Source: a virus
Length of the DNA stretch: 29,472 nucleotides
Reading direction: 5' to 3' (one strand)
IMG/VR virus record: IMGVR_UViG_3300021168_000504
Coordinates: 1-29,472 of that record
The notes under the pieces: model-generated
What the model was told of the DNA's origin: nothing
The model's database searches: none
The model's input: only the letters and a program-made list of their open reading frames with translations
In this document: piece after piece, positions 5,214 to 27,754 of the stretch
How the letters are laid out: every line of letters starts with the position of its first letter
Numbering within the stretch: position 1 is the first letter of the stretch
Translations under genes and position numbers: made by a program

Positions 5214-5381
5214 ATGGCAATTCCGACCAAAAAAGGCAATGCGGTCAAGATCAGCATCCGCCCCACCCCGGAAGATCAGAAGCTAGTCGGCCTGCTTCAT
5301 AAGAAGCTGGGCGTCGACACGGCGCAGATTTTCCGGCTCGCCATTCGTGCACTCGCCGTCAAGGAGGGTGTTACAGCCTGA
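5214..5381 (+). CDS. Ribbon-helix-helix DNA-binding protein
   Basis: 55 aa. A short basic strand (AVKISIRPTPEDQK) is followed by two helices (KLVGLLHKKLG and DTAQIFRLAIRALAVKEG), the fold pattern of MetJ/Arc-type ribbon-helix-helix regulators, which bind DNA as dimers. ATG 5214 is chosen because the frame upstream is occupied by the promoter. The message is probably leaderless. It is a candidate ligand for operators in the element, such as the 2.1-kb palindromes. The next gene overlaps by TGATG. Confidence 0.78.
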   Translation: MAIPTKKGNAVKISIRPTPEDQKLVGLLHKKLGVDTAQIFRLAIRALAVKEGVTA

Positions 5382-5851
5382 TGTCACACCTGTCACATCC
5401 TGAGCCAGTGTCCGATAAGAAGCAGATTGACGAACTCAATCGCCTTCCCGGATACCTACGCCACCATGTAGCCGTTCAACCGAACGGTTGCTGGCTTTGG
5501 ATGGGCCCTCAGTTCTCGCGCACTGGTTATGGCCGCATTTGGGATGGCAGGAAGAACTGGAAGGCTCACCGCCTAGTCTGGACACTCACCAAAGGGCCAA
5601 TTCCTGAAGGCGTCGACGTTCTGCACCACTGCGACACCCCGCTCTGCGTCAACTACGAAAAATGCCTCTTTCTCGGCACCGACAAAGACAACCACCAGGA
5701 CAAGGCCGCGAAGGGGCGCCACTGGCAGCAGAAGAAAACCCACTGCCCCAAGGGCCACGCATACACCCCCGAGAACACCTACATTCCGCCAAGTGGTGGA
5801 CGGCACTGCTGCATTTGTAAGGGGATGCCGCCGCGGAAGGTGGTTGCATGA
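5381..5851 (+). CDS. HNH endonuclease
   Basis: 156 aa. It has the layout of the phage HNH type that begins with GCWLWMG and GYGRI, followed by AHRLVWTLTKGPIPEG and a His-His/Cys core (VLHHCDTPLCVNYEKCLFLG, then DNHQDKAAKGRH). A C-terminal second metal site (HCPKGHAYTPENT, HCCICKG) follows. Such enzymes nick or cut DNA and are often mobile or packaging-associated. It starts by TGATG overlap with the RHH gene, so the two are co-translated. Confidence 0.88.
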   Translation: MSHLSHPEPVSDKKQIDELNRLPGYLRHHVAVQPNGCWLWMGPQFSRTGYGRIWDGRKNWKAHRLVWTLTKGPIPEGVDVLHHCDTPLCVNYEKCLFLGTDKDNHQDKAAKGRHWQQKKTHCPKGHAYTPENTYIPPSGGRHCCICKGMPPRKVVA

Positions 5852-8684: not shown

Positions 8685-9314
8685 ATGGCGAAGTTTGGAG
8701 CACTCGACACCACCGTCGCTGGCAGCCACACCGAACGAGAGTGGCTTGACCTCTTAGAGCAGTGGAATTGGCTGTGCTTCTACTGTGCAGAGCCGATAAA
8801 AAGAGGCTCTTCTGATCCAGATCACGAAGCGACCAAGGACCATATGGTCCCGATTTCCAGAGGCGGTGTCGATCACATCGCAAACATTGCGCCCGCCTGC
8901 CTTCGCTGCAACCAACTGAAAGGAAATAAGACTGTCGATGAATTCCGGGCAGAACGGGCTTGGGTCATCGCCGCAAAATCAACAGGTATTACTAGGTGCG
9001 AATCGCGGCCAAGCGATTCACACCGTGATTCGGACGTAACACTTGTGCCAACCGTGGAAATTGCAGCGATGTGGAAACGAGTCCTAGAGAGCATGCCGAA
9101 GAAAAACTTTCCCGACAATCACACCGACGAGTGGTACGTGCAGCGTAAGGCGATGCTGAAAGCGCAAGCGCAATCAATAGCACGCCGCCGCTTAGAGACC
9201 GCTGGCCAGTTAACGCTTCCCATCTTCGGCGACGGATCAGCCCGCAAGCTAGCACAGAGCGAGGAATCATCTATGCCGTTCAAAGGGATGGATGTTCAGG
9301 AGAAACAGGCATGA
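8685..9314 (+). CDS. HNH endonuclease with C-terminal extension
   Basis: 209 aa. A textbook HNH core lies at about residues 28-82: CFYC, then KDHMVPISRGG, IANIAPACLRCN and QLKGNKT. The remaining ~125 residues are helical and basic and may give DNA specificity. The family cleaves DNA using a beta-beta-alpha metal fold. It is the second HNH enzyme in the rightward operon and sits directly upstream of a small HTH protein gene, which it overlaps by ATGA. Confidence 0.9.
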   Translation: MAKFGALDTTVAGSHTEREWLDLLEQWNWLCFYCAEPIKRGSSDPDHEATKDHMVPISRGGVDHIANIAPACLRCNQLKGNKTVDEFRAERAWVIAAKSTGITRCESRPSDSHRDSDVTLVPTVEIAAMWKRVLESMPKKNFPDNHTDEWYVQRKAMLKAQAQSIARRRLETAGQLTLPIFGDGSARKLAQSEESSMPFKGMDVQEKQA

Positions 9315-14870: not shown

Positions 14871-15784
14871 GCGCCCAAGCGCGACCAGTTCTCAGGTACC
14901 ACGGAGGCAAATTTCGACTCGCGCCCAAGTTGCTCACCATCTTCCCACCTCACCGCGTCTATACCGAGGTGTTCGGCGGAGGCGGAAGCGTCCTGATGAT
15001 GAAGCCCAGGACCTACAGCGAACTCTACAATGACCTCGATCGCGAAGTCGTGAACGTATTCCGCGTGCTGCAGAACCGGGTGAAGGCGAAACACCTCGAG
15101 GCGCTTCTGCGGGTGACTCCGTTCTCCCGAGAGGAATTCGATTTGAGTTATATGCCGGGCGCCACCGACGTCGAGCGAGCCCGCCGCACCATCATTCGCT
15201 CGTTCATGGGCTTCGGCTCTGATTCCATTTCGCGCCTGAAGGCGACCCGCGCCGGCTTTAACACGCGCATCTCGTCCACGATGTCGACCGGGTTTCGCTA
15301 CAACGCAAACCGATCCGGCACGACGGCCGCGACGGACTGGCGGAACTATCCAAACTACATTTCCACATTTGTCGATCGCCTGCAGGGTGTGACGATCGAA
15401 AATCGCAACGCACTCGAAATTTTGCCCAAGGTGGACCGGCACGACGCGCTGCATTACGTGGATCCACCGTATCCGATGAGCACCCGGCGAACCGGCAATG
15501 GATCCACACCGGAGCATCGGTACCGCTGGGAGATGAACGACGAGGACCACCGCCAGCTCGCAGAATGCCTGAAGAGTCTCGCCGGCATGGTGATCATTTC
15601 CAGCTACCCAAGCGAGCTATACGACGAACTCTTCCGCGGATGGCGCAAGATGTCGTGGACCGCCGGAAACCTGTGCAGCGCCAACACAAACGCGCAAACC
15701 CGCACAGAAGTCGTTTGGATGAATGCGCAGGCCTGCAAACACACCCCGCAGCGCCTATTTGAGCATGCGGAGATGTTCGCTTGA
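14867..15784 (+). CDS. Dam-type N6-adenine DNA methyltransferase
   Basis: 305 aa from GTG 14867, chosen because it overlaps the previous stop; GTG 14858 is an alternative. The hallmarks of the D12 class are present: LRYHGGKFRLAPKLLTIFP, TEVFGGGGSVLM (SAM binding), ELYNDLDREVVNVFRVL and the catalytic DPPY in HYVDPPYPM. It methylates adenine in a short target and probably protects viral DNA or affects replication or packaging. The TGA overlaps the TTG of the ATPase gene. Confidence 0.92.
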   Translation: MSAQARPVLRYHGGKFRLAPKLLTIFPPHRVYTEVFGGGGSVLMMKPRTYSELYNDLDREVVNVFRVLQNRVKAKHLEALLRVTPFSREEFDLSYMPGATDVERARRTIIRSFMGFGSDSISRLKATRAGFNTRISSTMSTGFRYNANRSGTTAATDWRNYPNYISTFVDRLQGVTIENRNALEILPKVDRHDALHYVDPPYPMSTRRTGNGSTPEHRYRWEMNDEDHRQLAECLKSLAGMVIISSYPSELYDELFRGWRKMSWTAGNLCSANTNAQTRTEVVWMNAQACKHTPQRLFEHAEMFA

Positions 15785-16854
15785 TTCACCTAGGTTTCGA
15801 ATCTGGTACCGGGAACCCCGTGCACCTCCCGGTGGGCCACATGGTAATAGTGGGCCAGACCCAGCGCGCCGGTAAAACCACCGCCCTCGAGGCCTGCGCC
15901 TCCCGCTCCGATTCGAAGTGCATCGCCTTCCTTACCAAGCGCGGCGAAGGATCCTTCCGCCTGTCGCGCGAGCTCCCGCCCTACTATGAGGACCATGTCG
16001 ACTGGCGCACGGTGCGGACCCTATGCGAAGCGCTCACCGAGGAACGGTGGGACAAGTTCCAGCGCCAGTGCCTGCGCAGCGTCTGCCGTGCCGGCCAGGC
16101 CGGGCGGCCCGGATCCAAGCTGTTTGCCGAATGGCCGCGGCCAGACACGCTCGAGGACGTTGTGAGGAATGTCAGCATCGCACTCGCGAAAGCTACGGGA
16201 CAGCGCGAAATGATCTTCGGTGAGATTCAGGACGATCTAAAGACCGCTATCGAAGAGCTCGCAAAACTGAAAACGAGTTCCGCTAAACCCGATCTGGAAT
16301 TCGGCTTGAACGTGATCGACCTCGAGCGCTACGAGTTCCACATCCAATCCCTCATTGTGCGATCCGTCATCCGATGGGTACACCAGCATAGTTTTCGCAC
16401 GATCGTGGCTATGCCCGAAGCTTGGCGTTTCGCACCGGCCCAACGCCGATCGCCCGTGCGCGACGCCGCGGAGGAGTTCATCCGCCAGGGGGCAGCGCTC
16501 GAGAATTTCCTATGGATTGATTCCCAGAATATTTCCGGCATCAGTGCTGTACTGCTGAGCCAGATTCGCGTTTGGCTTTTTGGGGTGCAGCGCCTGCGCT
16601 CGGAAATCGAAAAGACACTGGACGCCATCCCCGAAAATCTCTATCCGCGGCCGTCGCGCTCCGATATCGCGACGCTGGGCAAAGGCGAATTTATCGTCTG
16701 CTTTGATCAGGAGATGTTCAAAACCTACGTGTGGCCCGCGTGGATGCGCAGCGCGTTGCACGCGGAGGCAATAGCCCGCGGCGAGGAATCCGTGGACAGC
16801 GCCCGGGCGATCGTGCAAGAGTTTGATCGAGAGCGCGGAGAGGCGAAACCATGA
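15781..16854 (+). CDS. FtsK/HerA-type ATPase, candidate DNA-packaging motor
   Basis: 357 aa from a TTG coupled by TTGA overlap. The P-loop is IVGQTQRAGKTT (residues 23-34), with five rather than four residues between the first Gly and GKT. A Walker-B-like strand is TIVAMPEAWRF, with Glu213 preceded by Pro instead of Asp, and a sensor-like strand is LWIDSQNISGIS (Gln249). This pattern, with CIAFLTKRGEGSF after the P-loop, fits the FtsK/HerA superfamily, used for packaging by tailless jelly-roll viruses and for DNA transfer by plasmids. Without a terminase in view, packaging is the favoured role; conjugation is the alternative. Confidence 0.68.
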   Translation: MIHLGFESGTGNPVHLPVGHMVIVGQTQRAGKTTALEACASRSDSKCIAFLTKRGEGSFRLSRELPPYYEDHVDWRTVRTLCEALTEERWDKFQRQCLRSVCRAGQAGRPGSKLFAEWPRPDTLEDVVRNVSIALAKATGQREMIFGEIQDDLKTAIEELAKLKTSSAKPDLEFGLNVIDLERYEFHIQSLIVRSVIRWVHQHSFRTIVAMPEAWRFAPAQRRSPVRDAAEEFIRQGAALENFLWIDSQNISGISAVLLSQIRVWLFGVQRLRSEIEKTLDAIPENLYPRPSRSDIATLGKGEFIVCFDQEMFKTYVWPAWMRSALHAEAIARGEESVDSARAIVQEFDRERGEAKP

Positions 16855-25911: not shown

Positions 25912-26237
25912 TTAGCCGACCTTCGGCCGCGGCCAGAGTTTGAAGCCTGAAAACACCAGCTGTACCGTGTTCGTCGCGCCGCTCGTGTCTGTGAAAAGCA
26001 AAGTGTAGACACGCGTGGCGGGCATGATGTACGGCACCGCCAGCGGAAACGCCGCCGTAGCCAGCGCCGTGCCTGCCCAGTTGTCGATGAAAATACCGTT
26101 GAAGGTTGCCGGCCCGGACGATGCCGAAGCCGTGGTGCCGATGAAATCGCGGCCCGTGGCCTGCTCTTTCATCATCACCTTAAGGCGCGTATCCGTGCGC
26201 GACGCCAGTACCCACCACCATTCGAACCTGTTTGTTA
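25912..26237 (-). CDS. Capsid candidate, exon 2 (C-terminal barrel)
   Basis: Minus-strand reading of 108 codons plus stop. Coding character extends upstream of the only usual start (ATG cluster near 26178): the same frame reads TNRFEWWWVLASRTDTRLKV just before it, then hits a TAG inside the predicted intron. The domain ends with VYTLLFTDTSGATNTVQLVF and SGFKLWPRP, like the two downstream barrel proteins. Joined to the 5' exon, the first codon becomes T+TA. If the intron is not real, the fallback is an 88-aa protein from ATG 26178. Confidence 0.68.
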
Positions 26238-26970
26238 CGCACCCCTAAAGGGCGGGAGCGGTCATTTCTGCCGCTCTCTCATGGTTCGAATTCCCATGAG
26301 AGCAGACTGTCGCATCATCCTCGAGGGATGTTCTCTCGCTCAGTCGTTCACGGTGGCTTGTGGCCTTCCGCCTTGTTCCCATCGCAGGGTTCAAGTCAAT
26401 CAGAGAGAATTTACTGTCCCGCATCGCTGCAGGCAGGGACCTAGAATTGATCCGCATCAGACAAAATCTGGAGTTGGTTTGGGTCTTGCGTTGCGCTCCC
26501 CGGTACGGCACGATCGAGCACATAGCTAAAGAACTGCCGCTCGAATTGGTCGTCGAGTAACGGGTCCAAGGTGTTTCCCCTTTCTTGTGGTGGTGGTAAA
26601 CTTCCGCGTGCCCGTAAAGGCGCAATATCGAAAGAACCCCGCCAAGTGTAGGCGCACACCGCACGGCCGAGCGAATAAACAGAGCCGCACAGCGAAACGC
26701 CGCGCCCTTTTGCGGAATGGAGGCTCGCTCACCGACAAACAATGGCAAGCCAAACTGAGGCGCTATCGCCATCGCTGTGCCCGTTGTCGCCGTCGTCGGA
26801 AAATTGAACTCCATCACGTCATTCCTCTTATCGCTGGCGGTCCGAACGTAATCAGGAACGTGCTTCCGCTCTGCCATCCCTGCCACGTTCAAACACACCG
26901 CGAACTGCGAAAGAAATCTGCGCGTTGACTGCTCGCCGACGCGCGGCGGCCATCCATCCGGATGCGGTTT
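26238..26970 (-). other. Group I self-splicing intron interrupting the capsid candidate gene
   Basis: On the minus strand the group I core can be paired in the right order. P3 is TTCTCTC (26409-26403) with GAGAGAA (26337-26331). P4 is CTTG (26395-26392) with CAAG (26375-26372), flanked by AA on both sides (J4/5). P5 is CCC/GGG. P6 is CGG/CCG with an inner GGC/GCC. P7 is GACTG (26345-26341) with CAGTC (26309-26305). P8 is CATCC-loop-GGATG (26330-26316). P9 is a perfect 9-bp stem (26302-26276), and AGCGG/CCGCT (26275-26257) follows. P1: exon end TCTGT (26975-26971) pairs with GCAGA (26921-26917) with the expected U.G at the splice site. The intron end at 26238 is a G. Confidence 0.85.
26587..26928 (+). 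CDS. HNH homing-type endonuclease, antisense inside the intron
   Basis: 113 aa at most, from one of three adjacent GTG codons at 26587-26595; the exact start is uncertain. The N-terminal part is very basic. The HNH core is CARCRRRRKIELHHVIPLIA, then GGPNVIRN, VLPLCHPCH, with two CxxC knuckles and His-His. It lies entirely within the intron but on the opposite strand to it, between P1 and P3, so expression would need its own promoter. Such nucleases spread introns by cutting intron-less alleles. Its last codons overlap the intron's internal guide sequence. Confidence 0.85.
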   Translation: MVVVNFRVPVKAQYRKNPAKCRRTPHGRANKQSRTAKRRALLRNGGSLTDKQWQAKLRRYRHRCARCRRRRKIELHHVIPLIAGGPNVIRNVLPLCHPCHVQTHRELRKKSAR

Positions 26971-27754
26971 ACAGAATCGCGCGGGCCAGTACGCCCTCGA
27001 GATAGACATGAGCATTAATGCCCGTGCCGATGAACTGCGTCGCCGGCGCTGCCGCCAACGTGGTGAATGCAGCCACACCAGCAATCGTGGGATCAAGGAT
27101 CACAACGAAGTTCTGGTTTTGTTCGATCAGCTGCCCCATGATTGGTTCCATGGGATCCAGGCCCGGAATTTGCGGCATGGGATCCGTGATCGTGGCTACG
27201 TTCTGCGCACTCGGCCAGCCGTTCGCCGTCGCCACCACACTCGTGCCGCCAGCTACCAGCGTTTGCGTGTTGCCGAACGTTGCGAACGTTCCAGCGCCTG
27301 CCGGCACCTTCGAGAACAGGGATTGCCAGTAGGGTTTACCGGAAATGTCCAGTTCCACATAGGTGGTGCCGATGAAGCTGTTCGTGTCCTGAATTGCCGC
27401 ATCAGAACGCAACACACCTGCCACCGCCTTGATGAGCAGCTTTTTCGGAGCGTCCAGCATGCCAGCCTGTACCAGGTTGGTGTGATAGACGGTTTTCGAG
27501 AAGGCCGCGCCACCGGAAGGGGTGTAGGATTGCCCGATGGGGAGCGAGAACAGTGATTGTTTCGTCACCGCGGTGGCAACCGCGACGGCGTAAAAATCAT
27601 AGATCGGCTGAACTAGGTACTCCAACTGCCCCGCGACGATCGGGTTTTTGCGTAGCAGATGAGTTCTGGGACGTCCGACTTCCCGCTCCTCGATCTCCGT
27701 ACACCGCGCGAAACGCGAAGCATAGCGGGATGAGAATTTTTCTTTGTTGACCAT
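26971..27754 (-). CDS. Major capsid protein candidate, exon 1
   Basis: 261 codons plus one nucleotide. Unspliced, it would end in a TAA at 26971-26969 whose last two bases are intron. The protein has a basic N-terminus, then alternating strands (FSLPIGQSYTPSGGAAFSKT, TNSFIGTTYVELDISGKPYW, QNFVVILDPTIAG, INAHVYLEGVLARAIL). AAGGAGG lies eleven bases before the ATG, consistent with high expression. Splicing to 25912-26237 gives 369 aa, like double-jelly-roll capsid proteins. Capsid identity rests on position, size, beta content and neighbours, not on a recognised family signature. Confidence 0.65.

What the first reader, a model, noticed from the sequence alone, without database searches (positions are those of the whole stretch)
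26238..26970. Group I intron in a viral capsid-region gene, not visible from ORFs alone
A complete set of group I pairings (P1, P3-P9) can be drawn on the minus strand in the correct order, including the A-rich J4/5 and a perfect 9-bp P9. The reading frame downstream of the intron has no proper start, while the one upstream ends at a stop made half of intron sequence. An ordinary annotation would report two genes with an HNH gene between them.
Basis: partly seen in the sequence, partly recalled or inferred. Interest (0 to 1): 0.9.

Follow-up and report, generated by a model that had tools for sequence, protein, structure and literature searches.

The report
Missed self-splicing intron in phage gene

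Summary
A group I intron is really there, but not the one described. The upstream gene (26969-27754, -) is complete: all 15 relatives found end it at the same '...RAIL*'. The interrupted gene is the next one: exon 1 26569-26450, intron 26449-26227 (223 nt, -), exon 2 26226-25912. The intron sits exactly between two codons (DAD|FEWWW); the joined exons match the 144-aa protein that intronless relatives encode unbroken. P1 (U·G at the 5' splice site), P2, P3-P9 and a terminal G are present. A covariance model built without this sequence finds it (144.8 bits, E 4e-33), finds none in intronless relatives, and also finds two mycobacteriophage introns whose splicing was shown by RT-PCR. Covariation in over 70 relatives, and the P7 pseudoknot, support the fold. 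Rfam RF00028 misses it, but scores those proven introns below its cut-off too. The HNH gene is antisense, intergenic and outside the intron. Intron and HNH occur together in only two distantly related lineages whose nearest kin have neither, which suggests collaborative homing (inferred). The intron belongs to a phage family found in more than 100 contigs, often in head genes. Kind known; member new. Splicing itself is untested.

The parts
26227..26449 (-). Group I intron, 223 nt, ORF-less
   Evidence: Insert against intronless relatives at an exact codon border; independent covariance model R2 144.8 bits, E 4e-33
26450..26569 (-). Exon 1, codons 1-40, TTG start, ends in GCGGAT (U pairs with G of the guide)
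   Evidence: tblastn with the unbroken L004 protein
25912..26226 (-). Exon 2 with stop codon, starts TTCGAATGG (FEWWW)
   Evidence: tblastn with the unbroken L004 protein; ORF end
26577..26583 (-). Likely ribosome-binding site AAAGGGG before the TTG start
   Evidence: Read directly from the sequence; inference
26437..26440 (-). Internal guide sequence GUCC, pairs with exon GGAU (P1)
   Evidence: Fold, coordinates; L028 keeps GCGGAU/GUCCGC
26414..26436 (-). P2 hairpin CUGCCUGCA-GCGA-UGCGGGACAG, absent from L028
   Evidence: Fold, alignment, coordinates
26403..26409 (-). P3 5' strand UUCUCUC
26331..26337 (-). P3 3' strand GAGAGAA
26353..26395 (-). P4-P5-P6 domain, AA in J4/5 and J5/4
26341..26345 (-). 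P7 5' strand GACUG (guanosine-binding site)
   Evidence: Pseudoknot not in the model, pairs in 100% of cells with covariation
26305..26309 (-). P7 3' strand CAGUC
26316..26330 (-). P8 hairpin
26276..26302 (-). P9 hairpin, 9 bp
26240..26274 (-). P9.1 and P9.2 hairpins
26587..26928 (+). HNH endonuclease ORF, 113 aa, antisense, intergenic, outside the intron
   Evidence: Pfam HNH 9.2e-9 over the whole domain; longer homolog at the same place in L028
26969..27754 (-). Complete upstream gene, 261 aa, not an exon
   Evidence: All 15 relatives found end at the same residue

Best explanation
A compact, ORF-less group I intron (26449-26227, -) interrupts a small gene of the virion-gene block. The transcribed RNA folds into P1-P9; guanosine bound in P7 attacks after the U of P1 at 26450; exon 1 then attacks after the terminal G at 26227, giving an mRNA for an unbroken 144-aa protein. 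Shown here: the fold, the borders and the exon homology. Inferred: splicing. The adjacent antisense HNH gene is outside the intron and probably helps both elements spread into intronless alleles (collaborative homing); this last step is inferred only from co-occurrence in two unrelated lineages (about 0.55 on its own).
For: Exact insert between two conserved codons, intronless in L001 and the other relatives. U·G P1 and terminal G in window and L028; same P1 in most checked family members. Independent model R2 finds the window at E 4e-33, none in intronless relatives. Strong covariation and P7 pairing outside the model. R1 and R2 find the BAKA and LittleE introns, spliced by RT-PCR (PMC3706429). 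For movement: window and L028 are not sisters (AU p 3e-36 and 6e-5); intron 86.5% and HNH gap 78% identical against 67.5% in exons; both have HNH plus intron.
Against: No splicing experiment. RF00028 gives no hit. P1 of the window is short (4-5 bp) and no convincing P10 was seen. For homing: exon 1 lies between HNH and intron but is no more alike than the rest (67.5%), so the two did not move as one recent block between these lineages; L028's HNH has an in-frame stop and the window's is shortened, so either may be inactive; most family contigs have no HNH or LAGLIDADG hit close to the intron.
Confidence: 0.93

Rival explanations
1. One reading: a 733-nt group I intron (26238-26970) that contains the HNH gene joins the 261-aa gene to the downstream frame.
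For: The HNH lies between the two frames and the pairings P3-P9 exist.
Against: All 15 relatives end the upstream gene at the same stop and carry the second gene separately with its own start; exon 1 of the second gene (26569-26450) would be thrown away; the P1 at 26450 fits the exact codon border.
Confidence: 0.02
2. The insert is a decayed, non-splicing intron and the gene is broken in this virus.
For: No expression data; P1 is short in the window.
Against: The core is intact, scoring among the best of the family; both exons keep open frames and high protein identity to L001; the identical copy in L016 and the same-site copy in L028 persist.
Confidence: 0.05
3. Intron and HNH share the place only because the intergenic gap is an insertion hot spot; the HNH does not mobilise the intron.
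For: L001 has an antisense LAGLIDADG-like ORF in the gap without an intron (Pfam 21.4 bits, just below the cut-off); L006 and L014 have other inserts there; exon 1 was not carried along; most family introns have no such gene nearby.
Against: HNH and intron are both present in window and L028 and both absent from the other compared relatives, although window and L028 are not sisters.
Confidence: 0.4

Closest known systems
Mycobacteriophage BAKA (tail gene) and LittleE (major capsid gene) group I introns, splicing shown by RT-PCR (PMC3706429)
   Same: Group I intron in a virion gene; both found by models R1 and R2; BAKA's is ORF-less and 265 nt; LittleE's carries an antisense endonuclease gene
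   Different: Distant in sequence; in LittleE the endonuclease gene is inside the intron, here it is outside
Cyanophage S-PM2 psbA intron with F-CphI, and the ICP1 terminase intron with an adjacent endonuclease gene: collaborative homing (PMC6083498, PMC10448857)
   Same: ORF-less intron or intron without its own nuclease, with a free-standing endonuclease gene next to the interrupted gene
   Different: HNH of another kind, antisense; no cleavage test here; other host gene
Phage MW202674 (Podoviridae sp. ctn9Y15), P22-like coat gene
   Same: Same intron family (R1 105.4 bits; 71.8% DNA identity); the coat gene is deposited as two CDS around it
   Different: Tailed phage, major coat gene; intron not annotated
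Rfam RF00028, group I catalytic intron
   Same: Group I fold
   Different: The model does not recognise this family: none of 20 family loci passes the gathering score; its incompleteness is noted in PMC11878797

Membership tests
Group I intron | 5' exon ends in U, paired with G of an internal guide (P1) | tested here: met
   GGAU/GUCC in window, GCGGAU/GUCCGC in L028; most family members alike
Group I intron | Intron ends in G | tested here: met
   26227 is G; border fixed by intronless relatives
Group I intron | Core helices P3-P6 and P8 in order, supported by covariation | tested here: met
   alignments are fitted to the model, but the R2 structure was automatic and excluded the window
Group I intron | P7 pseudoknot with G-C guanosine-binding pair | tested here: met
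   Not in the model; 100% of cells paired, four pairs covary, G-C and A-U invariant
Group I intron | Exact removal restores the host protein | tested here: met
   Joined exons align without gap to unbroken relatives
Group I intron | Guanosine-dependent self-splicing | not testable with these tools
   Bench test needed; related BAKA and LittleE introns splice (PMC3706429)
Rfam RF00028 | Score at or above the gathering cut-off (50 bits) | tested here: not met
   No hit; proven introns score 28.6 and 30.7 bits, so the failure says little about group I identity
Collaborative homing pair | Free-standing endonuclease gene next to an interrupted gene whose intron has no ORF | tested here: met
   HNH 26587-26928 (+) outside intron 26227-26449
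Collaborative homing pair | Endonuclease and intron occur together and move together | tested here: inconclusive
   Together in two unrelated lineages, but exon 1 between them did not move along
Collaborative homing pair | Endonuclease cuts the intronless insertion site and spares the intron-bearing one | not testable with these tools
   Biochemistry needed

The most novel reading that the evidence does not exclude
A collaborative-homing pair (ORF-less group I intron plus free-standing antisense HNH) operates in a virion-block gene of a tailless virus lineage. A nearly full relative has no recognisable terminase, portal, HK97 capsid or convincing tail gene, and the ATPase resembles HerA weakly. 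If so, this intron family, seen otherwise in tailed-phage head genes, has crossed into an unrelated virion-gene system.
Probability: 0.25. Interest if true: 0.65.

Novelty: new member of a known kind. Interest (0 to 1): 0.45.

Why it matters
It shows how short ORF-less group I introns hide as 'two small genes' in viral contigs, and that the standard Rfam model misses a whole phage family of them: more than 100 contigs carry the motif, and none of 20 checked loci passed the cut-off. Annotation of head genes is affected, as in MW202674, whose coat gene is deposited in two pieces. Near-identical pairs with and without the intron (window/L001, L028/L013), with an HNH gene beside the intron, make collaborative homing directly testable.

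Tried and rejected
RF00028 at gathering and at E<=10: no hit, kept as a negative but calibrated with BAKA and LittleE. The 733-nt reading: rejected on the relatives. Alternative 5' site 9 nt upstream (UUGUCU/GGACAG): would delete the conserved DAD codons, so rejected. Structure of the upstream protein: pLDDT 42, unusable. Fold search with the product of the intronless allele (all-beta, pLDDT 75): no PDB match below E 0.04 and one viral match at 2.5e-4 without a name. PDB sequence searches with the upstream, interrupted and neighbouring proteins: nothing. Phage-record searches with the upstream protein and the ATPase: nothing. ATPase profile against PDB: HerA only at E 0.21, not significant. 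Plasmid search for the intron: nothing. GTDB scan for the P7-P3-P8 core pattern: nothing. HNH relatives in the viral collection: only one distant locus returned.

Full report
What was checked first. The minus strand of 26238-26970 does carry group I pairings in order. A minimum-energy fold of 26475-26227 returns P1, P2, P3, P4, P5, P6, P8, P9, P9.1 and P9.2 by itself, and folds better than all 200 shuffles (z -3.08). Rfam RF00028 gives no match, at the gathering score or at E<=10.

Borders and host gene. The 261-aa upstream protein has 15 relatives in viral contigs. All end at the same '...RAIL*', so this gene is complete. The following gene in the relatives starts '(M)DP..DDQFERQFFSYVLDR' and runs unbroken. 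In the window its codons 1-40 lie at 26569-26450 and codons 41-142 at 26226-25921, split exactly at DAD|FEWWW. The insert is therefore 26449-26227, 223 nt, with an in-frame TAG at its seventh to ninth base. L001, 96% identical over 1.3 kb of the neighbouring DNA, lacks it. L016 carries the same insert in identical flanks; L028 has an insert at the same site.

Is it a group I intron. The 5' exon ends in U, paired with G of the guide sequence: window GGAU/GUCC, L028 GCGGAU/GUCCGC. The last intron base is G. A pattern from the P7-P3-P8 core found 14 viral contigs and no GTDB genome. Most checked members show the same U·G P1 about 3 nt before P3.

Models. R1, built from 11 cores including the window, finds 28 matches in 31 loci and 86 in 69 further loci. 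Covariation is strong: 87.8% of cells paired against 59.4% in shuffles, and 89.0% against 68.4% in 73 distinct new sequences. These alignments are fitted to the model, which favours its helices. P7 was not in the model; it pairs in 100% of cells, with four pairs changing on both sides and two never varying. R2, built without window and L028 from an automatic structure, finds the window at 144.8 bits, E 4e-33, and nothing in the intronless relatives.

Link to proven introns. R1 and R2 find the introns of mycobacteriophages BAKA (53.5 and 32.3 bits) and LittleE (35.8 and 23.9 bits), whose splicing was shown by RT-PCR (PMC3706429). RF00028 gives those only 28.6 and 30.7 bits, below its cut-off of 50, and none of 20 loci of this family passes. 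So the negative RF00028 result is a limit of that model. PMC11878797 makes the same point about the Rfam model and phage introns.

The HNH gene. It lies on the + strand at 26587-26928, between the two genes, 137 bp from the intron site and outside the intron. It matches Pfam HNH over the whole domain (9.2e-9). L028 has a longer form at the same place, with an in-frame TAG; the window's copy is an in-frame shortened form. Neither is proven active.

Spread. On trees of both neighbouring proteins the window is sister to intronless L001, while L028 groups with intronless L013 (and L008); joining window and L028 is rejected (AU p 3e-36 and 6e-5). Between window and L028 the intron is 86.5% identical, the HNH gap 78%, exons 67.5%, the upstream gene 62.7%. 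This fits lateral movement of both elements. Exon 1, which lies between them, was not carried along, so a single recent block transfer between these two lineages is unlikely. Window and L001 are about 98% alike upstream, fall to 77% at the edge of the gap and 70-78% in exon 1, and stay mostly lower and uneven downstream (68-95% in 60-nt windows). The locus thus sits at a recombination boundary, as described for phage nuclease genes (PMC10448857). Collaborative homing (PMC6083498, PMC3984707) is therefore my favoured but unproven reading, at about 0.55.

Family context. Other members interrupt or adjoin major head genes (L031, L038, L039), lie before a portal-like gene (L043) or next to a head maturation protease frame (L042, with the HNH inside the intron). 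In MW202674 a P22-like coat gene is deposited as two CDS around such an intron. In 45 checked records only a few have an HNH or LAGLIDADG hit close to the intron.

What virus. The window is an IMG/VR record of 29472 bases. A 38.8-kb relative (L008) has no PHROG or Pfam match to terminase, portal, HK97 capsid or, convincingly, tail genes among the ORFs scanned; the ATPase profile resembles HerA only weakly (E 0.21). A tailless virus is possible but not shown.

Verdict.

Noticed in passing
L001 5855-6292 (-): The nearest, intronless relative carries an antisense LAGLIDADG-like ORF (Pfam 21.4 bits, just below the cut-off of 23.1) in the same intergenic gap where the window has its HNH; L006 and L014 have other inserts there.
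   Followed up: partly
window 26569; L028 1083; L001 6346: Alleles with an endonuclease ORF in the gap have lost the ATG start of the following gene: TTG in window and L028, ATC in L001, where most relatives have ATG.
   Followed up: no
L032 6022-8636: One viral contig of 9.4 kb has six or more matches to the intron model in a few kilobases, with LAGLIDADG and HNH-like ORFs among them.
   Followed up: no
L038 3596-4062; L043 2331-2719: Two introns of the family lie only a few tens to about 120 bases apart in each of these contigs.
   Followed up: no
MW202674.1 16569-18084: P22-like coat gene deposited as two separate CDS with a hypothetical protein between them; the gap is an intron of this family.
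   Followed up: yes
window 15781-16854 against L047 and L048: The ATPase is 98-99% identical among viruses whose virion-block genes differ by up to a third, so these genomes are mosaic.
   Followed up: no
window 5381-5851 (+), 8685-9314 (+): Two further HNH endonuclease genes in the same genome.
   Followed up: no
L004 5001-5783: The upstream gene of this relative contains one in-frame stop codon; sequencing error or broken gene.
   Followed up: no
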